Part shown: positions 22,475 to 27,271 of the stretch, piece after piece
Numbering within the stretch: position 1 is the first letter of the stretch
Layout: the number at the start of each line of letters is the position of its first letter
Source: a virus
Virus record (IMG/VR): IMGVR_UViG_3300010354_000483
Span: 1 to 27,877 of that record
Reading direction: 5' to 3' (one strand)
Length of the DNA stretch: 27,877 bases
Position numbers and translations under genes: made by a program
The notes under the pieces: generated by a model
The model's database searches: none
What the model saw: the letters and a program-made list of their open reading frames with translations, nothing else
Told to the model about the DNA's origin: nothing

Positions 22475-23590
22475 TCAGCCTGTTGCAGCGTTTGCCTTTG
22501 CCATAGCAGATAGTTCTTCGATATTTAAGCCCATGCGAACATAGACTGTGTATTCGATTGTATCCTTCTTTGGCTTGAACTCGCGGTGAACAGTTACGTC
22601 TCTTTGGAATCCCCAAATTCTATTTTGTGGGAATGTCAAGTCAACGAAATGGTCGGGGTACAGCGGAACTTCCATAACTGGAATACCAAAGATAGAAGTT
22701 GTCATACCTGATGGGCCACCAACACGGGCTGGTGTACCACGGAGAACGCCAGAAGCAATATCTTCAGGGACTCCACCAGATCCAATTGTGCGTAGATCTG
22801 TTAGAAGTGTCTGAATATTCTTTGTTGAAGCATAGAACTTAAGTTCGCCTCTACGAGCCTTGTACTTACGTCCAAGTGCATTGTAAAGTGCTTCAAAGAA
22901 TGCAATTGCAGAACCTGACTTTAGTGCTCCTGATGTTGTTGCTGCTGTGAAGTACTGTGACGCTGTTGTTACTGTTGCAGCAGTGCCAAAGTGAGTTCCA
23001 CCAGCGGCACCATCAGCAAGTGTTACGAATCCATCAAGAGTGTATGGATAGAAAACACCTGCATATGAAGCAGTTGATGCGTCTGTCGCTTGACCATTGA
23101 TTGCAATATCCTCAAGGTCATTACCAAATTGTGATGCCATTAGGCGTACAATATGGTCTTCAAGAGCCGCTCCTTCAATGTTATCCTCAAGACCTTCAGT
23201 TGAAAGTTCGTAGTCAAGACGGAACTTTGTTGTTACAATCTCAACCTTAGTGAATTGAGCACCACGGTTAACATATGTTGCTGATGTGTTGGTGTCTGCG
23301 TTAAAAACACTGTCGCTTGCTTGAGAAGCCTTACGAATAAGACGAGTTCCAACTTGAATCTTGTCAAATTCTGCTGTATTTGCACGCATAACCTGTCTAC
23401 GACCATCATTTCCAAGAACCATCTGATCAAAAATGTAGTCTAGGAATTGACGAGACTGTTCTGGTAAAAGAACACCACCAGCCTGAGTTGTTGGATTTGT
23501 TGTCAAGTTCTCCATATTGGTATTAGCAATATCAGAGATGATTGTACCAGTACCAACATTTGTTACTGCTTTATTAATTACATCGCTCAT
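22475..23590 (-). CDS. Major capsid protein (HK97 fold)
   Basis: A 371-residue protein from ATG 23590, preceded by AGAGGTG with a 7-base spacer. N-terminal residues about 1-45 are polar, then LLPEQSRQFLDYIFDQMVLG begins the core; RRGELKFYASTKNIQTLLTD, IFGIPVMEVPLYPD and a C-terminal EFKPKKDTIEYTVYVRMGLN end are typical of HK97-fold capsid proteins. Position directly after the protease and before the connector confirms it. The gene is richer in G+C and uses CGT arginine codons where other genes use AGA. It assembles the icosahedral shell; the scaffold function is probably provided by the C-terminus of the upstream protease gene. The end is marked by an intrinsic terminator. Length is near the family norm for capsid proteins without a long N-terminal delta domain. 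Confidence 0.93.
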   Translation of the reverse strand: MSDVINKAVTNVGTGTIISDIANTNMENLTTNPTTQAGGVLLPEQSRQFLDYIFDQMVLGNDGRRQVMRANTAEFDKIQVGTRLIRKASQASDSVFNADTNTSATYVNRGAQFTKVEIVTTKFRLDYELSTEGLEDNIEGAALEDHIVRLMASQFGNDLEDIAINGQATDASTASYAGVFYPYTLDGFVTLADGAAGGTHFGTAATVTTASQYFTAATTSGALKSGSAIAFFEALYNALGRKYKARRGELKFYASTKNIQTLLTDLRTIGSGGVPEDIASGVLRGTPARVGGPSGMTTSIFGIPVMEVPLYPDHFVDLTFPQNRIWGFQRDVTVHREFKPKKDTIEYTVYVRMGLNIEELSAMAKANAATG

Positions 23591-23618: not shown

Positions 23619-25640
23619 TTAAAATATTTCTGCGGAATTGAGGAAACGCCCGCCCCACATTGACTTTCTCAATACGGGTTGTTCTGACAAACTATATTCA
23701 AGTTCACCAGACTTCTTTATTGCTGTATCTTCTTCTACAGAGTTAACTCTTACGGATAACTCTTCTGTATTCTTTGTAAGATCAGCCAAACTCTTTGTAA
23801 GTTCCTCGTACTTACTCTGCATTTCTGCCACCTTGTCGTTTAAAGACTTGGCAAGATCGGATACTGACTCTGAAATTAGAGTCATTCCGTTATTGCTTGA
23901 CTCAATTGAGTTAGCAATGGCTTTTTCAACCAGATCCTTAACCTCGCCTAAAGCCTTTGCAAGATCAAATTGTTCGGAAGTGTCAACGGCTTGATTCTCT
24001 ACGCCGTCAGCCTTTTCAAGATCAACGTCTTCTTCGTCAATCTCTTCTACTGTCTCTTCCACTTCGAATTCAACCTCTTCGGCATCGGCGGTGTCAAGTT
24101 CAGGGCTTTCTACATTATCAGCCACTTCAACACCTCCTTCATTATTTGAATCAAACTTTTTCATTGATTCTGTTTTATTCTTACTTGCTAAAGGATGACC
24201 CTTTGGCAATAAGTCTGTATCAAACGGTTTTCTTTTAAATCTTCCGGTTCTTACAGCAGAAAGGAAACCATTCACTCTAGCAAGCGCCCATTGCTCTGCT
24301 GATGCGACATTTGGGCGTACAGAACTTGGATTTGTTCTATACGCTCCTATACCACGATTGTATACTTGTCTAAGCATAGCAAAAGTTACTTTCTTAGAAC
24401 TAACATTACCATATTTTTCATTATGTTGTGTTACTAATTCTCTTAATCTTGCAGTAGATCCAGACTCAGCCTTTTCAATTTTTTTTTCCAAAGGCTTTAG
24501 TTTTTTAAGGTTACTAAGTTTTTTAGCAACTCTTCTATCTGTAGGAACAAACTTACCAGATGCAGTCTCACGATAAACTCTAACTATTGCTACAGGATTA
24601 TCATTAGTAGCCTCAATCATTTCATTTGTTCCACGAACCTTAACAGATCCAGATCTTTTTATAGATTCAATTTTACCTTTAGCATACTGTGTTGGTTGTG
24701 GATCTTTGTTGACAGCATACGCAACAAAATCTCCAGATGAAACCTCTCCAGCAGAAACTTTATACATTCTTTTCTTCTTTGCTCGTCTCATTGTTTGAGA
24801 AACTTTACCGGGAAGACCTTGCTCTGGATTTCTATTAATTGTAGTTTCGTTAGTTATAGTTTCTTTCATTACATCTTCTTCTTCATCTTCAATATCTTCA
24901 ACATGCATCTTTTTTTGCATAACTGAACTAACAGCCTTAGAAATTTCAGAATCTTTATCAGAATCTTCTGACTCAACCCAACCAATAATATCCATAGATT
25001 TATGACACATTACACAATCAGCAACTTCTAGTGATTCAGTAATAGCAATTTCATCTTCTTTACACCAGAAAATATTCTCAACCGAGAAACCTGTAGCAAT
25101 CCCAGTTGTTACTATTTCATTATCAACTTTTTGAATTGACAATATATTAGCAAACTGATTTGCTGGACTATCAACAAGTGATAGTTCCATAAGTTCATAT
25201 TTCTTTACAATACGAATAGGCTGTTCTGTTTCATCGTCCATTCCCGGTTCAAAGTCAACAATTTTTCCACCGATAGAAAAACCTGTTAATGTTCCATCAA
25301 GAACCATCTGCCAGATATTTTCTGCACCCTTAGAAATGTAAGCATCAACAAAGACTCCGCTATAAGATTTAGCCGTCTTTGGATCATAAAAAGAATTTTC
25401 TCTAAAAGAAACTACCTTGCCAGCCGGGATTGGCTGGTGCATGAGACGCACATTTCCTCTAAAGTTTTCAAACGCTTGTCTTGAAGCCTCTGAAAGAAGT
25501 TTGTCTCCTTGACGATCAATGTTGTCTAACGTTGCAAATCCACTAACCATGCGTCGTTCTTCATCGACCTTAGCGATAGGCATAGTGAATCGCAAATTGG
25601 TATCATCACTTTCAAAATGTGCTTTATATATTTCTTTCAT
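23619..25640 (-). CDS. Multidomain prohead protease (XkdF-like) with scaffold-like C-terminus
   Basis: A 673-residue protein from ATG 25640; the frame opens further to TTG 25658, which has its AGGA only one base upstream and is unlikely. No Shine-Dalgarno precedes ATG 25640. Order of parts: residues about 15-170 are an XkdF/HK97-type serine protease, with H68 in LMHQ and S154 in ELSLVDSPAN as candidate catalytic residues and GFATLDNIDRQGDKL as a family-like start; 190-225 hold a Cys-Cys-x2-Cys-His cluster (C193, C209, C212, H213) before MDIIGWVE, perhaps zinc-binding; 300-365 are a small barrel with KGKIESI; 395-495 hold VTFAMLRQVYNRGIGAY and DTDLLPKGHPLASK, a domain I know from phage proteins without a named function; 505-560 are acidic; 565-650 are coiled coil, ending SMWGGRFLNSAEIF. 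The last parts probably act as scaffold before self-cleavage. Confidence 0.85.
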   Translation of the reverse strand: MKEIYKAHFESDDTNLRFTMPIAKVDEERRMVSGFATLDNIDRQGDKLLSEASRQAFENFRGNVRLMHQPIPAGKVVSFRENSFYDPKTAKSYSGVFVDAYISKGAENIWQMVLDGTLTGFSIGGKIVDFEPGMDDETEQPIRIVKKYELMELSLVDSPANQFANILSIQKVDNEIVTTGIATGFSVENIFWCKEDEIAITESLEVADCVMCHKSMDIIGWVESEDSDKDSEISKAVSSVMQKKMHVEDIEDEEEDVMKETITNETTINRNPEQGLPGKVSQTMRRAKKKRMYKVSAGEVSSGDFVAYAVNKDPQPTQYAKGKIESIKRSGSVKVRGTNEMIEATNDNPVAIVRVYRETASGKFVPTDRRVAKKLSNLKKLKPLEKKIEKAESGSTARLRELVTQHNEKYGNVSSKKVTFAMLRQVYNRGIGAYRTNPSSVRPNVASAEQWALARVNGFLSAVRTGRFKRKPFDTDLLPKGHPLASKNKTESMKKFDSNNEGGVEVADNVESPELDTADAEEVEFEVEETVEEIDEEDVDLEKADGVENQAVDTSEQFDLAKALGEVKDLVEKAIANSIESSNNGMTLISESVSDLAKSLNDKVAEMQSKYEELTKSLADLTKNTEELSVRVNSVEEDTAIKKSGELEYSLSEQPVLRKSMWGGRFLNSAEIF

Positions 25641-25669: not shown

Positions 25670-27271
25670 TTAATCTTGCTGTCTTCCATCGCCCTGCGTT
25701 GATCTTGGAAGTTCCGCAGAGTCTGACTGATTTGATGAACGATTTTGATCTCTTAACCTATTTCTGGTAGCCTGAGCAGTTTGTTCTGCTGCTTGCTGTC
25801 CAGTGAGAACTATTGGAACATCACCATCTTGTAAACTTGTTAATCCAAGTCTTGATCTTACTTCGTTTGGAACGATTGTCTTCATTCTAAGATATCTTTC
25901 ATCAATCTTAGATTGAGTTTCTTCATCAGTAAGAGTTAACTCGTTAAACTCAAATCTGAAAATATCTGTTTTCTCTTCTAAAATTTTATTTATCTTTTTC
26001 TCAAGTGAGTCCTGTGCTGGACGACATACTTGTTCTTTGAATGTTCTATCTGCTTCTCTGGCAGCAGCAAGACCAATTCCCTCTGCCGCGCCAACTTTAG
26101 AGGCAGGTGTTCTATGAACCATAAGAATTTCTTGAATATTAGACTTGTAGTAATTAGAAAATGATGAGTCTTGAATACTTGATTCAACCGCTTCCATCTT
26201 CATATCTACTTTTGATTCGGGTGTGTCTGCTGGAATAGGAACAATTACTGTTCTATGGTTTTGTCCCTTTATGTTACCTTGAAAAAACTCAAATAGTCTT
26301 TCTTCAGCAGTTCTGGACATTTTTGCGCCTTTTATCCAAAAGATATAGCGTGGAACTGCTTTGTTTTCAAAGTACTCAAGGTTGAATCTTGAAGCAAACT
26401 CATTACCAGCCATTGCATTTTTGGCTGCAATAATTGCTGGGATTCCATAGTAAGTGTTTGTTGGAGTATAGTTCTTTATATGAATAATCTCATTTGGTTT
26501 TTGATCTGTAGTTATTGGATTCTTTGTTTCAGTATCCTGAAAGTTTCTAAAAAATACTGCCTTGCCAGCAACTATTTGAACAAACCCATCTCTTATTCTT
26601 CTTACTCTCATTGTGGCAGATGGAATATGTCCAATATAACCAATCTCACCATTTGATTTTCTACCAATTTCAATATATCCATTACCAGTTGACTCAACAT
26701 CAATATATACCTTCATTAAAGTTGCTGTTAATGTGTCATCATCGTTTCTAGATTCAAGCCAATCAATGGCCCTAGTCTTTGCTTTTGATATGTTCTTTCT
26801 TACTCTTGAAAGTTCTTCTTGATCTGTAATGTCTTCCATTCTTTGCATAACAGAATTTGATGGTTTTAGATCATAACCCAAACCAACAATATTAGAAGCC
26901 TTAGCATTAATAGCCGCAAAGTTTGGACCAGAAACTTCATATATTTTTGACAATGATATAAGATTATATGTTGGCTCAACTACATCAAAAACACCATAGC
27001 CATATTTATCTGGAATAATTTGTTTTGATGAAGCATTGTCTCCAGAATACATGTTTCCATCTGATTCTATTATTTGCCCGCCAGCAGTTATTAGAGCCTT
27101 ATTAAGTTTTCTTGAAACTGCTCTTTTAAAGTTTTGAGAGATACCGTTTAGTTTTAAAATCTCTTCAGCAGAAATTTTAAAATCATCAGTATCAGTGGCT
27201 ATAGCAGTTGACGGCTGAGCACTTGATAATCTAACTTCTTGAATCAATGGCTCTTGTATTTCGTTTTGCAT
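25670..27271 (-). CDS. Portal protein (HK97 family)
   Basis: A 533-residue protein from ATG 27271, inside the last 41 bases of the upstream small gene. The first 60 residues are variable. The central part has ALITAGGQIIESDGN..., SKIYEVSGPNFAAINAKASN, then DVESTGNGYIEIGRKSNGEI, GYIGHIPSATMRVRRI and a NEIIHIKNYTPTNTYYGIPA segment, the last being the usual 'I-H...Y-G-P' portal signature. The segment VHRTPASKVGAAEGIGLAAA followed by READRTFKEQVCRPAQDSLEKK and the final FRFEFNELTLTDEETQSKID are also portal-like. The C-terminus (residues about 490-533) is polar and Gln/Arg/Ser-rich. It forms the dodecameric DNA gate at one capsid vertex. Context: protease and capsid gene follow directly. The terminase gene must lie outside the window. 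Confidence 0.92.
   Translation of the reverse strand: MQNEIQEPLIQEVRLSSAQPSTAIATDTDDFKISAEEILKLNGISQNFKRAVSRKLNKALITAGGQIIESDGNMYSGDNASSKQIIPDKYGYGVFDVVEPTYNLISLSKIYEVSGPNFAAINAKASNIVGLGYDLKPSNSVMQRMEDITDQEELSRVRKNISKAKTRAIDWLESRNDDDTLTATLMKVYIDVESTGNGYIEIGRKSNGEIGYIGHIPSATMRVRRIRDGFVQIVAGKAVFFRNFQDTETKNPITTDQKPNEIIHIKNYTPTNTYYGIPAIIAAKNAMAGNEFASRFNLEYFENKAVPRYIFWIKGAKMSRTAEERLFEFFQGNIKGQNHRTVIVPIPADTPESKVDMKMEAVESSIQDSSFSNYYKSNIQEILMVHRTPASKVGAAEGIGLAAAREADRTFKEQVCRPAQDSLEKKINKILEEKTDIFRFEFNELTLTDEETQSKIDERYLRMKTIVPNEVRSRLGLTSLQDGDVPIVLTGQQAAEQTAQATRNRLRDQNRSSNQSDSAELPRSTQGDGRQQD

What the first reader, a model, noticed from the sequence alone, without database searches (positions are those of the whole stretch)
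23619..25640. Five-part protease-scaffold fusion with a Cys cluster
One frame combines an XkdF-like serine protease, a C-x15-C-x2-C-H cluster, a small barrel domain, a Gly/Tyr-containing helical domain (VTFAMLRQVYNRGIGAY to DTDLLPKGHP) and an acidic plus coiled-coil C-terminus with a basic-aromatic end. The middle domains have no role I can name. A protein that is both protease and scaffold must be cut and removed in order.
Basis: partly seen in the sequence, partly recalled or inferred. Interest (0 to 1): 0.5.

Follow-up and report, generated by a model that had tools for sequence, protein, structure and literature searches.

The report
Phage protease-scaffold carrying swappable domain cassette
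A virus of bacteria makes its head-building protease and its temporary scaffold as one chain, with a small, probably metal-binding domain and a swappable pair of extra domains in between, and the chain appears to carry its own conserved cut marks that would let the protease chop it into pieces once the head shell is built.

Summary
The frame is real: 673 aa, minus strand, 25640-23619, between portal and capsid genes. Order: capsid-maturation protease (T4 gp21-like fold, Z 12.5), zinc-ribbon-like domain, Tudor-like barrel, DUF5824, acidic linker, coiled coil, W-x-G-x-F tail. Three corrections. (1) The cluster reads C-x2-[D/E/H]-x12-C-x2-C: the His after the last Cys is not conserved (9 of 104), the Asp is, and the three Cys are kept or lost together (106 all, 25 none, 0 partial, of 131). 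(2) The unnamed middle is a Tudor-like barrel plus DUF5824, a tandem also found on other carriers; DUF5824 sits on head proteins in 72 of 81 carriers examined. Relatives have no cassette, barrel only, or barrel(s) plus DUF5824. (3) Behind the protease, hydrophobic-x-K-[A/S] is in 4.9-fold excess (429 against 88); hydrophobic-x-K also lies at the capsid protein's N-terminus (22 of 22). The format resembles known prohead-protease sites (HK97 K103/S104), so I infer cut sites. Zinc, cutting and the fate of the pieces are untested. It is a new variant of a known kind (protease-scaffold fusion).

The parts
23619..25640 (-). whole protease-scaffold frame, 673 aa plus stop
25581..25640 (-). N-terminal tail (residues 1-20) with predicted cut K6|A7
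   Evidence: motif at this position in 47 of 56 rows; that it is cut is inference
25146..25580 (-). capsid maturation protease domain (residues 21-165); H68 and S122 are nearly invariant candidates for catalysis
   Evidence: T4 gp21 Z 12.5, rmsd 2.5, 124 aligned
25083..25145 (-). low-confidence linker (residues 166-186) holding invariant K171 (followed by V in the window, so not the full motif)
24909..25082 (-). zinc-ribbon-like domain and following helix (residues 187-244); presumed ligands C193, D196, C209, C212
24759..24908 (-). acidic then basic linker (245-294)
   Evidence: mostly pLDDT under 50
24486..24758 (-). Tudor-like barrel (295-385)
24165..24482 (-). DUF5824 helical domain (387-492); predicted cut K390|A at its front edge
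   Evidence: (35.6 bits, cut-off 25)
23964..24164 (-). acidic linker (493-559) with predicted cut K543|A
23724..23963 (-). presumed scaffold coiled coil (560-639) with predicted cuts after K562, K598, K616
23622..23723 (-). C-terminal tail (640-673): invariant A640, K643, S644, W662, F666; predicted cuts after K643 and K659
22475..23590 (-). major capsid protein; about 40 residues before the conserved core; predicted short N-terminal trim after K7
   Evidence: (phrog_1623, virion structural protein)
25670..27271 (-). portal protein
   Evidence: Phage_portal 111.4 bits

Best explanation
The gene makes a self-processing assembly core. The C-terminal coiled coil and the W-x-G-x-F tail act as the capsid's internal scaffold and bring the fused protease into the prohead. 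A small metal-stabilised ribbon sits directly behind the protease as a folded spacer or docking unit. Between ribbon and scaffold this lineage has inserted a tandem of a Tudor-like barrel and DUF5824, a cassette also found on other phage head proteins. After shell assembly the protease becomes active and cuts after Lys in hydrophobic-x-K|[A/S] sites placed near its own N-terminus, at some module edges, through the scaffold and tail, and at the capsid protein's N-terminus. The scaffold is thereby chopped into small peptides that can leave, and folded modules are freed as beads. Shown: gene order, domain make-up, all-or-none ligand set, presence and absence of the cassette among relatives, excess and conservation of the motif. 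Inferred: metal binding, scaffold action, cutting at the motif, timing, fate of the pieces, role of the cassette.
For: Portal, this gene and the capsid gene are adjacent, with 29 and 28 bases between them if the ATG at 25640 is the start, leaving no room for another scaffold gene there. Protease: Peptidase_S78 over cut-off, phrog_9427 E 1.6e-112, T4 gp21 Z 12.5 over 124 residues. Streptomyces phages (Stanwilliamsviridae) have a shorter homologue annotated as capsid or head maturation protease directly before the capsid gene, with one small gene between portal and protease; in Rhodococcus phage Grayson portal, protease and capsid genes follow each other directly. Ribbon: 106 of 131 ribbon-covering sequences have all three Cys and 25 have none; among the 106 the fourth position is D 102, H 2, E 2; among the 25 the first Cys is always D and the fourth position N (13) or S (12). 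On a protease-domain tree of 60 rows the Cys state changes at least twice. Cassette: of 126 family loci, 51 have neither domain, 25 barrel only, 50 barrel(s) plus DUF5824 (some loci are cut short); at least 4 changes of barrel and 2 of DUF5824 on the tree, 55 complete rows. Motif: 429 against 88.4 expected in the part after the protease of 60 rows, 60 of 60 above expectation, 55 of 60 at p<=0.05; control motifs 0.77-1.22 of expectation. By region over 56 rows: protease 13 against 23.7, coiled coil 172 against 25.9, C-tail 99 against 9.5, linker before DUF5824 30 against 5.8. HK97 cut site K103/S104 (passage of PMC10275583); SPN3US gp245 cuts after A-x-E with Ser favoured at P1' and cuts propeptides several times (passages of PMC10052503).
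Against: No cleavage, metal or assembly data. The motif was noticed on the same family it was tested on, and the rows are homologous, so the 60 rows are not independent. Five rows do not reach p<=0.05, among them two cultured phages (StarPlatinum, row L155: 2 against 0.84; Grayson: 2 against 0.93). The motif is also in excess inside beads that should stay whole: ribbon plus helix 53 against 12.6 (mostly at the end of the helix, residues 235 and 243) and DUF5824 22 against 10.7; and the linker between ribbon and barrel is poor in it (5 against 10.9). After DUF5824 the window has M-K-K-F, not the motif, so clean release of DUF5824 is not predicted here. The capsid protein's excess (3 against 0.7, p 0.028) is one of 12 tests. 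The full-length model has mean pLDDT 62.8 and pTM 0.29, and Foldseek alone gave it no match at E<=0.001; the gp21 match comes from the second aligner. Twenty-five relatives do without the Cys set, so metal is not essential to the plan.
Confidence: 0.68

Rival explanations
1. The hydrophobic-x-K-[A/S] repeats are not cut sites but repeated contact motifs of the scaffold (for capsid protein, portal or self-assembly), and the protease cuts elsewhere.
For: Most sites lie in or near the coiled coil and the C-tail, where scaffold-capsid contacts are expected; a coiled coil would favour regular spacing; some sites lie within folded parts.
Against: The same pattern with E or D at the third place is not in excess (0.78, 0.91) and K followed by polar residues only 1.22; a site also lies in front of the protease (49 of 57 rows), at the capsid N-terminus (22 of 22 with hydrophobic-x-K) and just before DUF5824, where scaffold contacts are less expected.
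Confidence: 0.25
2. The barrel-DUF5824 cassette is retained in the mature head as an internal protein (DNA organiser or cargo delivered into the host), not removed with the scaffold.
For: DUF5824 is fused to portals, capsid polyproteins, proteases and a MuF protein, which share only the head; the barrel resembles Tudor/BAH/PWWP-type folds, one listed with ssDNA (Z about 6, not decisive).
Against: No virion proteomics was at hand; the barrel's fold match is within the range of common arrangements, and DUF5824 has no match at E <= 0.001 in solved structures.
Confidence: 0.3
3. The Cys cluster is a redox or disulfide element rather than a metal site.
For: Three cysteines, short of a Cys4 site; metal binding is untested.
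Against: A fourth ligand-type residue (D/E/H) is present with the three Cys in 106 of 106 and is N or S in the 25 that lack them; C-x2-C knuckle spacing; 89 of 104 three-Cys proteins have no other Cys.
Confidence: 0.1
4. The coiled coil is not the scaffold: another protein outside this window scaffolds the head.
For: The window is a 27.9 kb virus record, probably a fragment, so genes elsewhere cannot be seen.
Against: No gene lies between portal, this gene and the capsid gene; the capsid protein has only about 40 residues before its core in the window and at most about 75 in the 22 compared (L164, L199); the W-x-G-x-F end is present in 112 of the 114 members that reach it, cassette or not.
Confidence: 0.12

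Closest known systems
Capsid maturation proteases of Stanwilliamsviridae (Streptomyces phages StarPlatinum, Bmoc, Beuffert, Circinus) and of Rhodococcus phage Grayson
   Same: Protease plus C-x2-D-x12-C-x2-C ribbon plus helical C-terminus, directly before the capsid gene
   Different: 423-448 aa, no barrel and no DUF5824; in the four Streptomyces phages a small gene lies between portal and protease; Grayson's end is F-H-G-V-F, not W-x-G-x-F
Phage P2 gpO (recalled, from no call)
   Same: Serine protease and scaffold in one chain that cuts itself
   Different: No ribbon, barrel or DUF5824 that I recall; sequence relation not tested here
HK97 protease gp4 and the scaffold domain of its capsid protein
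   Same: Prohead protease system with a Lys|Ser cut (K103/S104; passage of PMC10275583)
   Different: HK97 carries the scaffold on the capsid protein, here it is on the protease; the cut-off of the HK97 protease model TIGR01543 is not reached
T4 gp21 and SPN3US gp245 prohead proteases
   Same: Fold (gp21, Z 12.5); P3-x-P1 type recognition, Ser favoured at P1', multiple cuts in propeptides (SPN3US)
   Different: Cut after Glu (SPN3US; T4: recalled); no fused scaffold of this kind (recalled)
Pfam DUF5824 and Hva1_TUDOR
   Same: The two cassette domains or their near kin
   Different: No described function for DUF5824; no paper in the held library names it
C+/C- zinc-ribbon pairs among ribosomal proteins (recalled)
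   Same: All metal ligands kept or lost together while the fold stays
   Different: Unrelated proteins

Membership tests
Caudovirus prohead serine protease (Peptidase_S78) | Pfam gathering score | tested here: met
   27.2 against 21 bits
Caudovirus prohead serine protease (Peptidase_S78) | capsid-protease fold | tested here: met
   T4 gp21 Z 12.5, rmsd 2.5 over 124 residues; HCMV protease Z 7.6; Foldseek alone no match at E<=0.001
Caudovirus prohead serine protease (Peptidase_S78) | catalytic Ser/His and activity | tested here: inconclusive
   H68 and S122 nearly invariant; activity and third residue not tested
XkdF-type (Peptidase_S78_2) | Pfam gathering score | tested here: not met
   19.5 against 24 bits; of ten relatives scanned, L139, L171 and L199 pass it
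HK97 family prohead protease (TIGR01543) | NCBIfam cut-off | tested here: not met
   25.3 against 59 bits
Protease-scaffold fusion (P2 gpO-like arrangement) | protease and a coiled-coil, scaffold-like part in one frame before the capsid gene | tested here: met
   that the coiled coil scaffolds is inferred
Protease-scaffold fusion (P2 gpO-like arrangement) | self-cleavage and release of scaffold | not testable with these tools
   needs protein data
DUF5824 (PF19141) | Pfam gathering score | tested here: met
   35.6 against 25 bits
Hva1_TUDOR (PF11160) | Pfam gathering score for the window's barrel | tested here: not met
   no Pfam match for the window barrel; of ten relatives scanned L013, L146 and L187 pass, L139 and L171 fall just short; profile comparison of the window-type barrels with L013-type barrels gives 99.3% probability
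Zinc ribbon | four metal ligands in two knuckles, metal bound | tested here: inconclusive
   C-x2-[DEH] and C-x2-C kept or lost as a set; metal binding untested

The most novel reading that the evidence does not exclude
Phage head genes serve as loading platforms: a small set of promiscuous domains (barrel, DUF5824, DUF3721, ChaB, phrog_2859 module) is stitched onto whichever head protein faces the prohead interior (protease, portal end, capsid N-terminus, MuF), carried into the shell, cut free by the prohead protease at built-in marks (here hydrophobic-x-K|[A/S]), and kept in the head as internal proteins that act on DNA or are delivered into the next host.
Probability: 0.2. Interest if true: 0.72.

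Novelty: new variant of a known kind. Interest (0 to 1): 0.45.

Why it matters
It turns an unexplained stretch of a large environmental phage family into testable parts: a presumed metal site with a natural Cys-less control group, a cassette that can be compared present and absent among relatives, and predicted cut sites. It also gives DUF5824, a phage domain of unknown role, a consistent setting: proteins of the head.

Tried and rejected
Rejected: the trailing His as ligand (9 of 104). Rejected: 'no known domain' for the middle. Fold of DUF5824: a confident model (pLDDT 87.6, pTM 0.81) gave no PDB match at E <= 0.001 (best E 3.1) and best VIA Z 6.4 to a sigma-28 chain, which for a helical bundle is not meaningful; the 13 viral predicted structures at E <= 0.001 are, where named, proteins called XkdF, ChaB or prohead protease, most being unnamed. 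Foldseek on the full-length model gave no match at E <= 0.001. Sequence search of solved structures gave nothing below E 0.1 with the DUF5824 profile, nothing up to E 1 with the capsid protein, and with the full alignment 75 matches of which the 60 listed are coiled-coil or helical proteins matched through the C-terminal part.

Mended counts: a first script count of the ribbon misread rows and was replaced, which still misplaced L010 and missed L168; both are three-Cys and are counted so here. L197 ends before the ribbon and is left out. Rows dropped before the tree: six left out beforehand (L010, L021, L041, L042, L049, L197), four without the anchor motif (L169, L177, L179, L192), then 122 reduced to 60 at 93% identity. 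The BLAST classing of DUF5824 carriers put L112 and L116 with portals; Pfam calls L112 a protease, and I count both (L116 by its same length and class) as proteases. Of 20 carriers scanned by Pfam, DUF5824 is over its cut-off in 11, listed below it in 5, and not listed in 4 (L068, L071, L134 and the Salinibacter protein); membership of the 81 rests on my own profile.

Selection: the 80 best of at least 582 DUF5824 hits and 80 best of at least 597 protease hits were kept, so counts lean towards near relatives and, towards proteins that have the ribbon region. The five already-held family loci among the 80 are not in the 81; seven of the 81 belong to the window's own family.

Papers: searches on the ribbon in capsid or prohead proteases gave 8 and 2 papers, judged by title in the listings and not opened; none named DUF5824. 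That is the extent of the search.

Full report
Observation. The minus-strand frame 25640-23619 encodes 673 residues. Portal (25670-27271) lies directly upstream and the capsid protein (22475-23590) directly downstream, 29 and 28 bases away.

Anatomy. A predicted model on 56 aligned relatives (mean pLDDT 62.8, pTM 0.29) shows beads on a string: protease about 21-160, linker, ribbon plus helix 187-248, linker, barrel about 291-384, DUF5824 helices 394-465, long low-confidence acidic linker, helices 560-580 and 585-639, low-confidence tail. The protease bead matches T4 gp21 at Z 12.5 (rmsd 2.5, 124 aligned) and HCMV protease at Z 7.6, although Foldseek alone found nothing at E<=0.001 for the whole chain. 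Pfam Peptidase_S78 is over its cut-off, XkdF is not, nor is TIGR01543. PHROGs names residues 3-267 head maturation protease (phrog_9427).

Ribbon. Counting the window, 49 relatives, 77 new loci and five cultured actinophage proteins (132 sequences), 131 cover the ribbon. Of these, 106 have all three Cys, 25 have none, none has one or two. With the three Cys the residue three places after the first is D in 102, H in 2, E in 2; without them the first Cys is always D and that residue is N in 13 and S in 12. The surroundings stay recognisable (FW or FY, then M and IG). On a tree from the protease part alone (60 rows) the Cys state needs two changes; L199, with all ligands, sits inside the otherwise Cys-less clade.

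Cassette. DUF5824 is over its Pfam cut-off. The window's barrel has no Pfam hit of its own but aligns by profile at 99.3% probability with barrels of relatives; of ten relatives scanned, three (L013, L146, L187) pass the Hva1_TUDOR cut-off. Structurally it lies near Tudor, BAH and chromo-type domains at Z about 5-6.6, within the range of common arrangements. Among 126 family loci, 51 have neither domain, 25 a barrel only, 19 one barrel plus DUF5824 and 31 two barrels plus DUF5824 (some loci end inside the gene); DUF5824 was found with a barrel in 50 of 50. At least 4 changes of barrel and 2 of DUF5824 are needed on the protease tree (55 complete rows of 60). L005, L008, L010 and L011 carry a further Cys-containing insert.

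DUF5824 elsewhere. Of 81 carrier frames (79 retrieved plus the window and a Salinibacter phage protein), I assign 72 to head proteins: 30 portals, 21 capsid polyproteins, 20 proteases (seven of them the window's own family), 1 MuF (scripted BLAST to segments with Pfam or PHROG hits, corrected by Pfam for L112, L116 and L134; the Salinibacter protein itself has no library hit and rests on likeness to L133). Nine remain unassigned. Pfam itself puts DUF5824 over its cut-off in 11 of 20 carriers scanned; the rest rest on my profile. In 16 of 81 a barrel is found, and in all 16 a barrel directly precedes DUF5824 (gap 3-26 residues); nine of these, in about six kinds of carrier, are outside this family, among them an XkdF protease (L088) and a MuF protein (L072). 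So the pair seems to move as one unit. That these positions face the prohead interior is inference from known head anatomy.

Cut-site inference. [LIVMFY]-x-K-[AS] occurs 429 times after the protease in 60 rows against 88.4 expected by shuffling; 60 of 60 rows exceed expectation and 55 of 60 reach p<=0.05. The five that do not are L136, L155 (StarPlatinum), L180, L198 and Grayson. Changing K to E or D, the hydrophobic residue to a polar one, or A/S to polar residues gives 0.78, 0.91, 0.77 and 1.22 of expectation. Of 12 other window proteins only the capsid protein shows an excess (3 against 0.7, p 0.028, not corrected for 12 tests), one of its sites at residue 7. By region over 56 rows: N-tail 47 against 3.8, protease 13 against 23.7, first linker 17 against 5.6, ribbon plus helix 53 against 12.6, ribbon-barrel linker 5 against 10.9, barrel 26 against 19.4, linker before DUF5824 30 against 5.8, DUF5824 22 against 10.7, acidic linker 68 against 9.3, coiled coil 172 against 25.9, C-tail 99 against 9.5. 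So the sites frame some modules but not every border, and some lie within predicted folded parts. All 22 capsid proteins examined (window plus 21 loci) have hydrophobic-x-K in the first 14 residues, followed by A 15, V 5, N 2. HK97's cut is K103/S104 (passage, PMC10275583), and SPN3US gp245 cuts after A-x-E with Ser favoured after the cut and several cuts per propeptide (passages, PMC10052503). I therefore read the motif as P3-x-P1|P1' of this protease. Rows are homologous and the motif was seen before it was tested, so the number measures an excess and is not an independent proof.

Mechanism. The scaffold part assembles with capsid protein, the protease is carried inside, activation leads to cuts at the marks, scaffold fragments leave, the capsid N-terminus is trimmed. 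The ribbon stays a folded unit whose metal can be dispensed with in one lineage. The cassette's role is unknown; removal with the scaffold and retention as an internal protein are both open. All of this paragraph is inference.

Novelty. Protease-scaffold fusions are known (P2 gpO, recalled). New here, as far as the searches (listings only) can tell: the all-or-none ribbon, the travelling barrel-DUF5824 pair, and the predicted Lys marks.

Noticed in passing
L199 5001-6305: A relative with the full Cys ribbon nested inside the Cys-less clade: mosaic exchange of the ribbon or two separate losses.
   Followed up: partly
L043, L044, L045: Protease part strongly diverged while ribbon, cassette and scaffold stay close to the window family: likely recombination behind the protease.
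   Followed up: partly
L066 residues 447-612, L108 residues 223-369: PHROG families labelled 'RNA ligase' (phrog_14859, L066) and 'DNA methyltransferase' (phrog_1530, both) match a region that Pfam calls the XkdF protease; the labels look wrong or come from fusions.
   Followed up: no
L053 794-2038: By eye (no library search), a transposon-type TnpB/OrfB-like protein near the protease gene of a Salinibacter phage.
   Followed up: no
L072, L079, L082, L108, L112, L120: Other small promiscuous modules (DUF3721, ChaB, phrog_2859) sit beside DUF5824 on head proteins.
   Followed up: partly
L133 888-3923, L100 4363-7179: DUF5824, S78 protease and capsid protein in one polyprotein (DUF5824 in L133 just below Pfam's cut-off).
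   Followed up: no
L135 2171-5563: Portal, DUF5824 and MuF in one 1131-residue protein.
   Followed up: no
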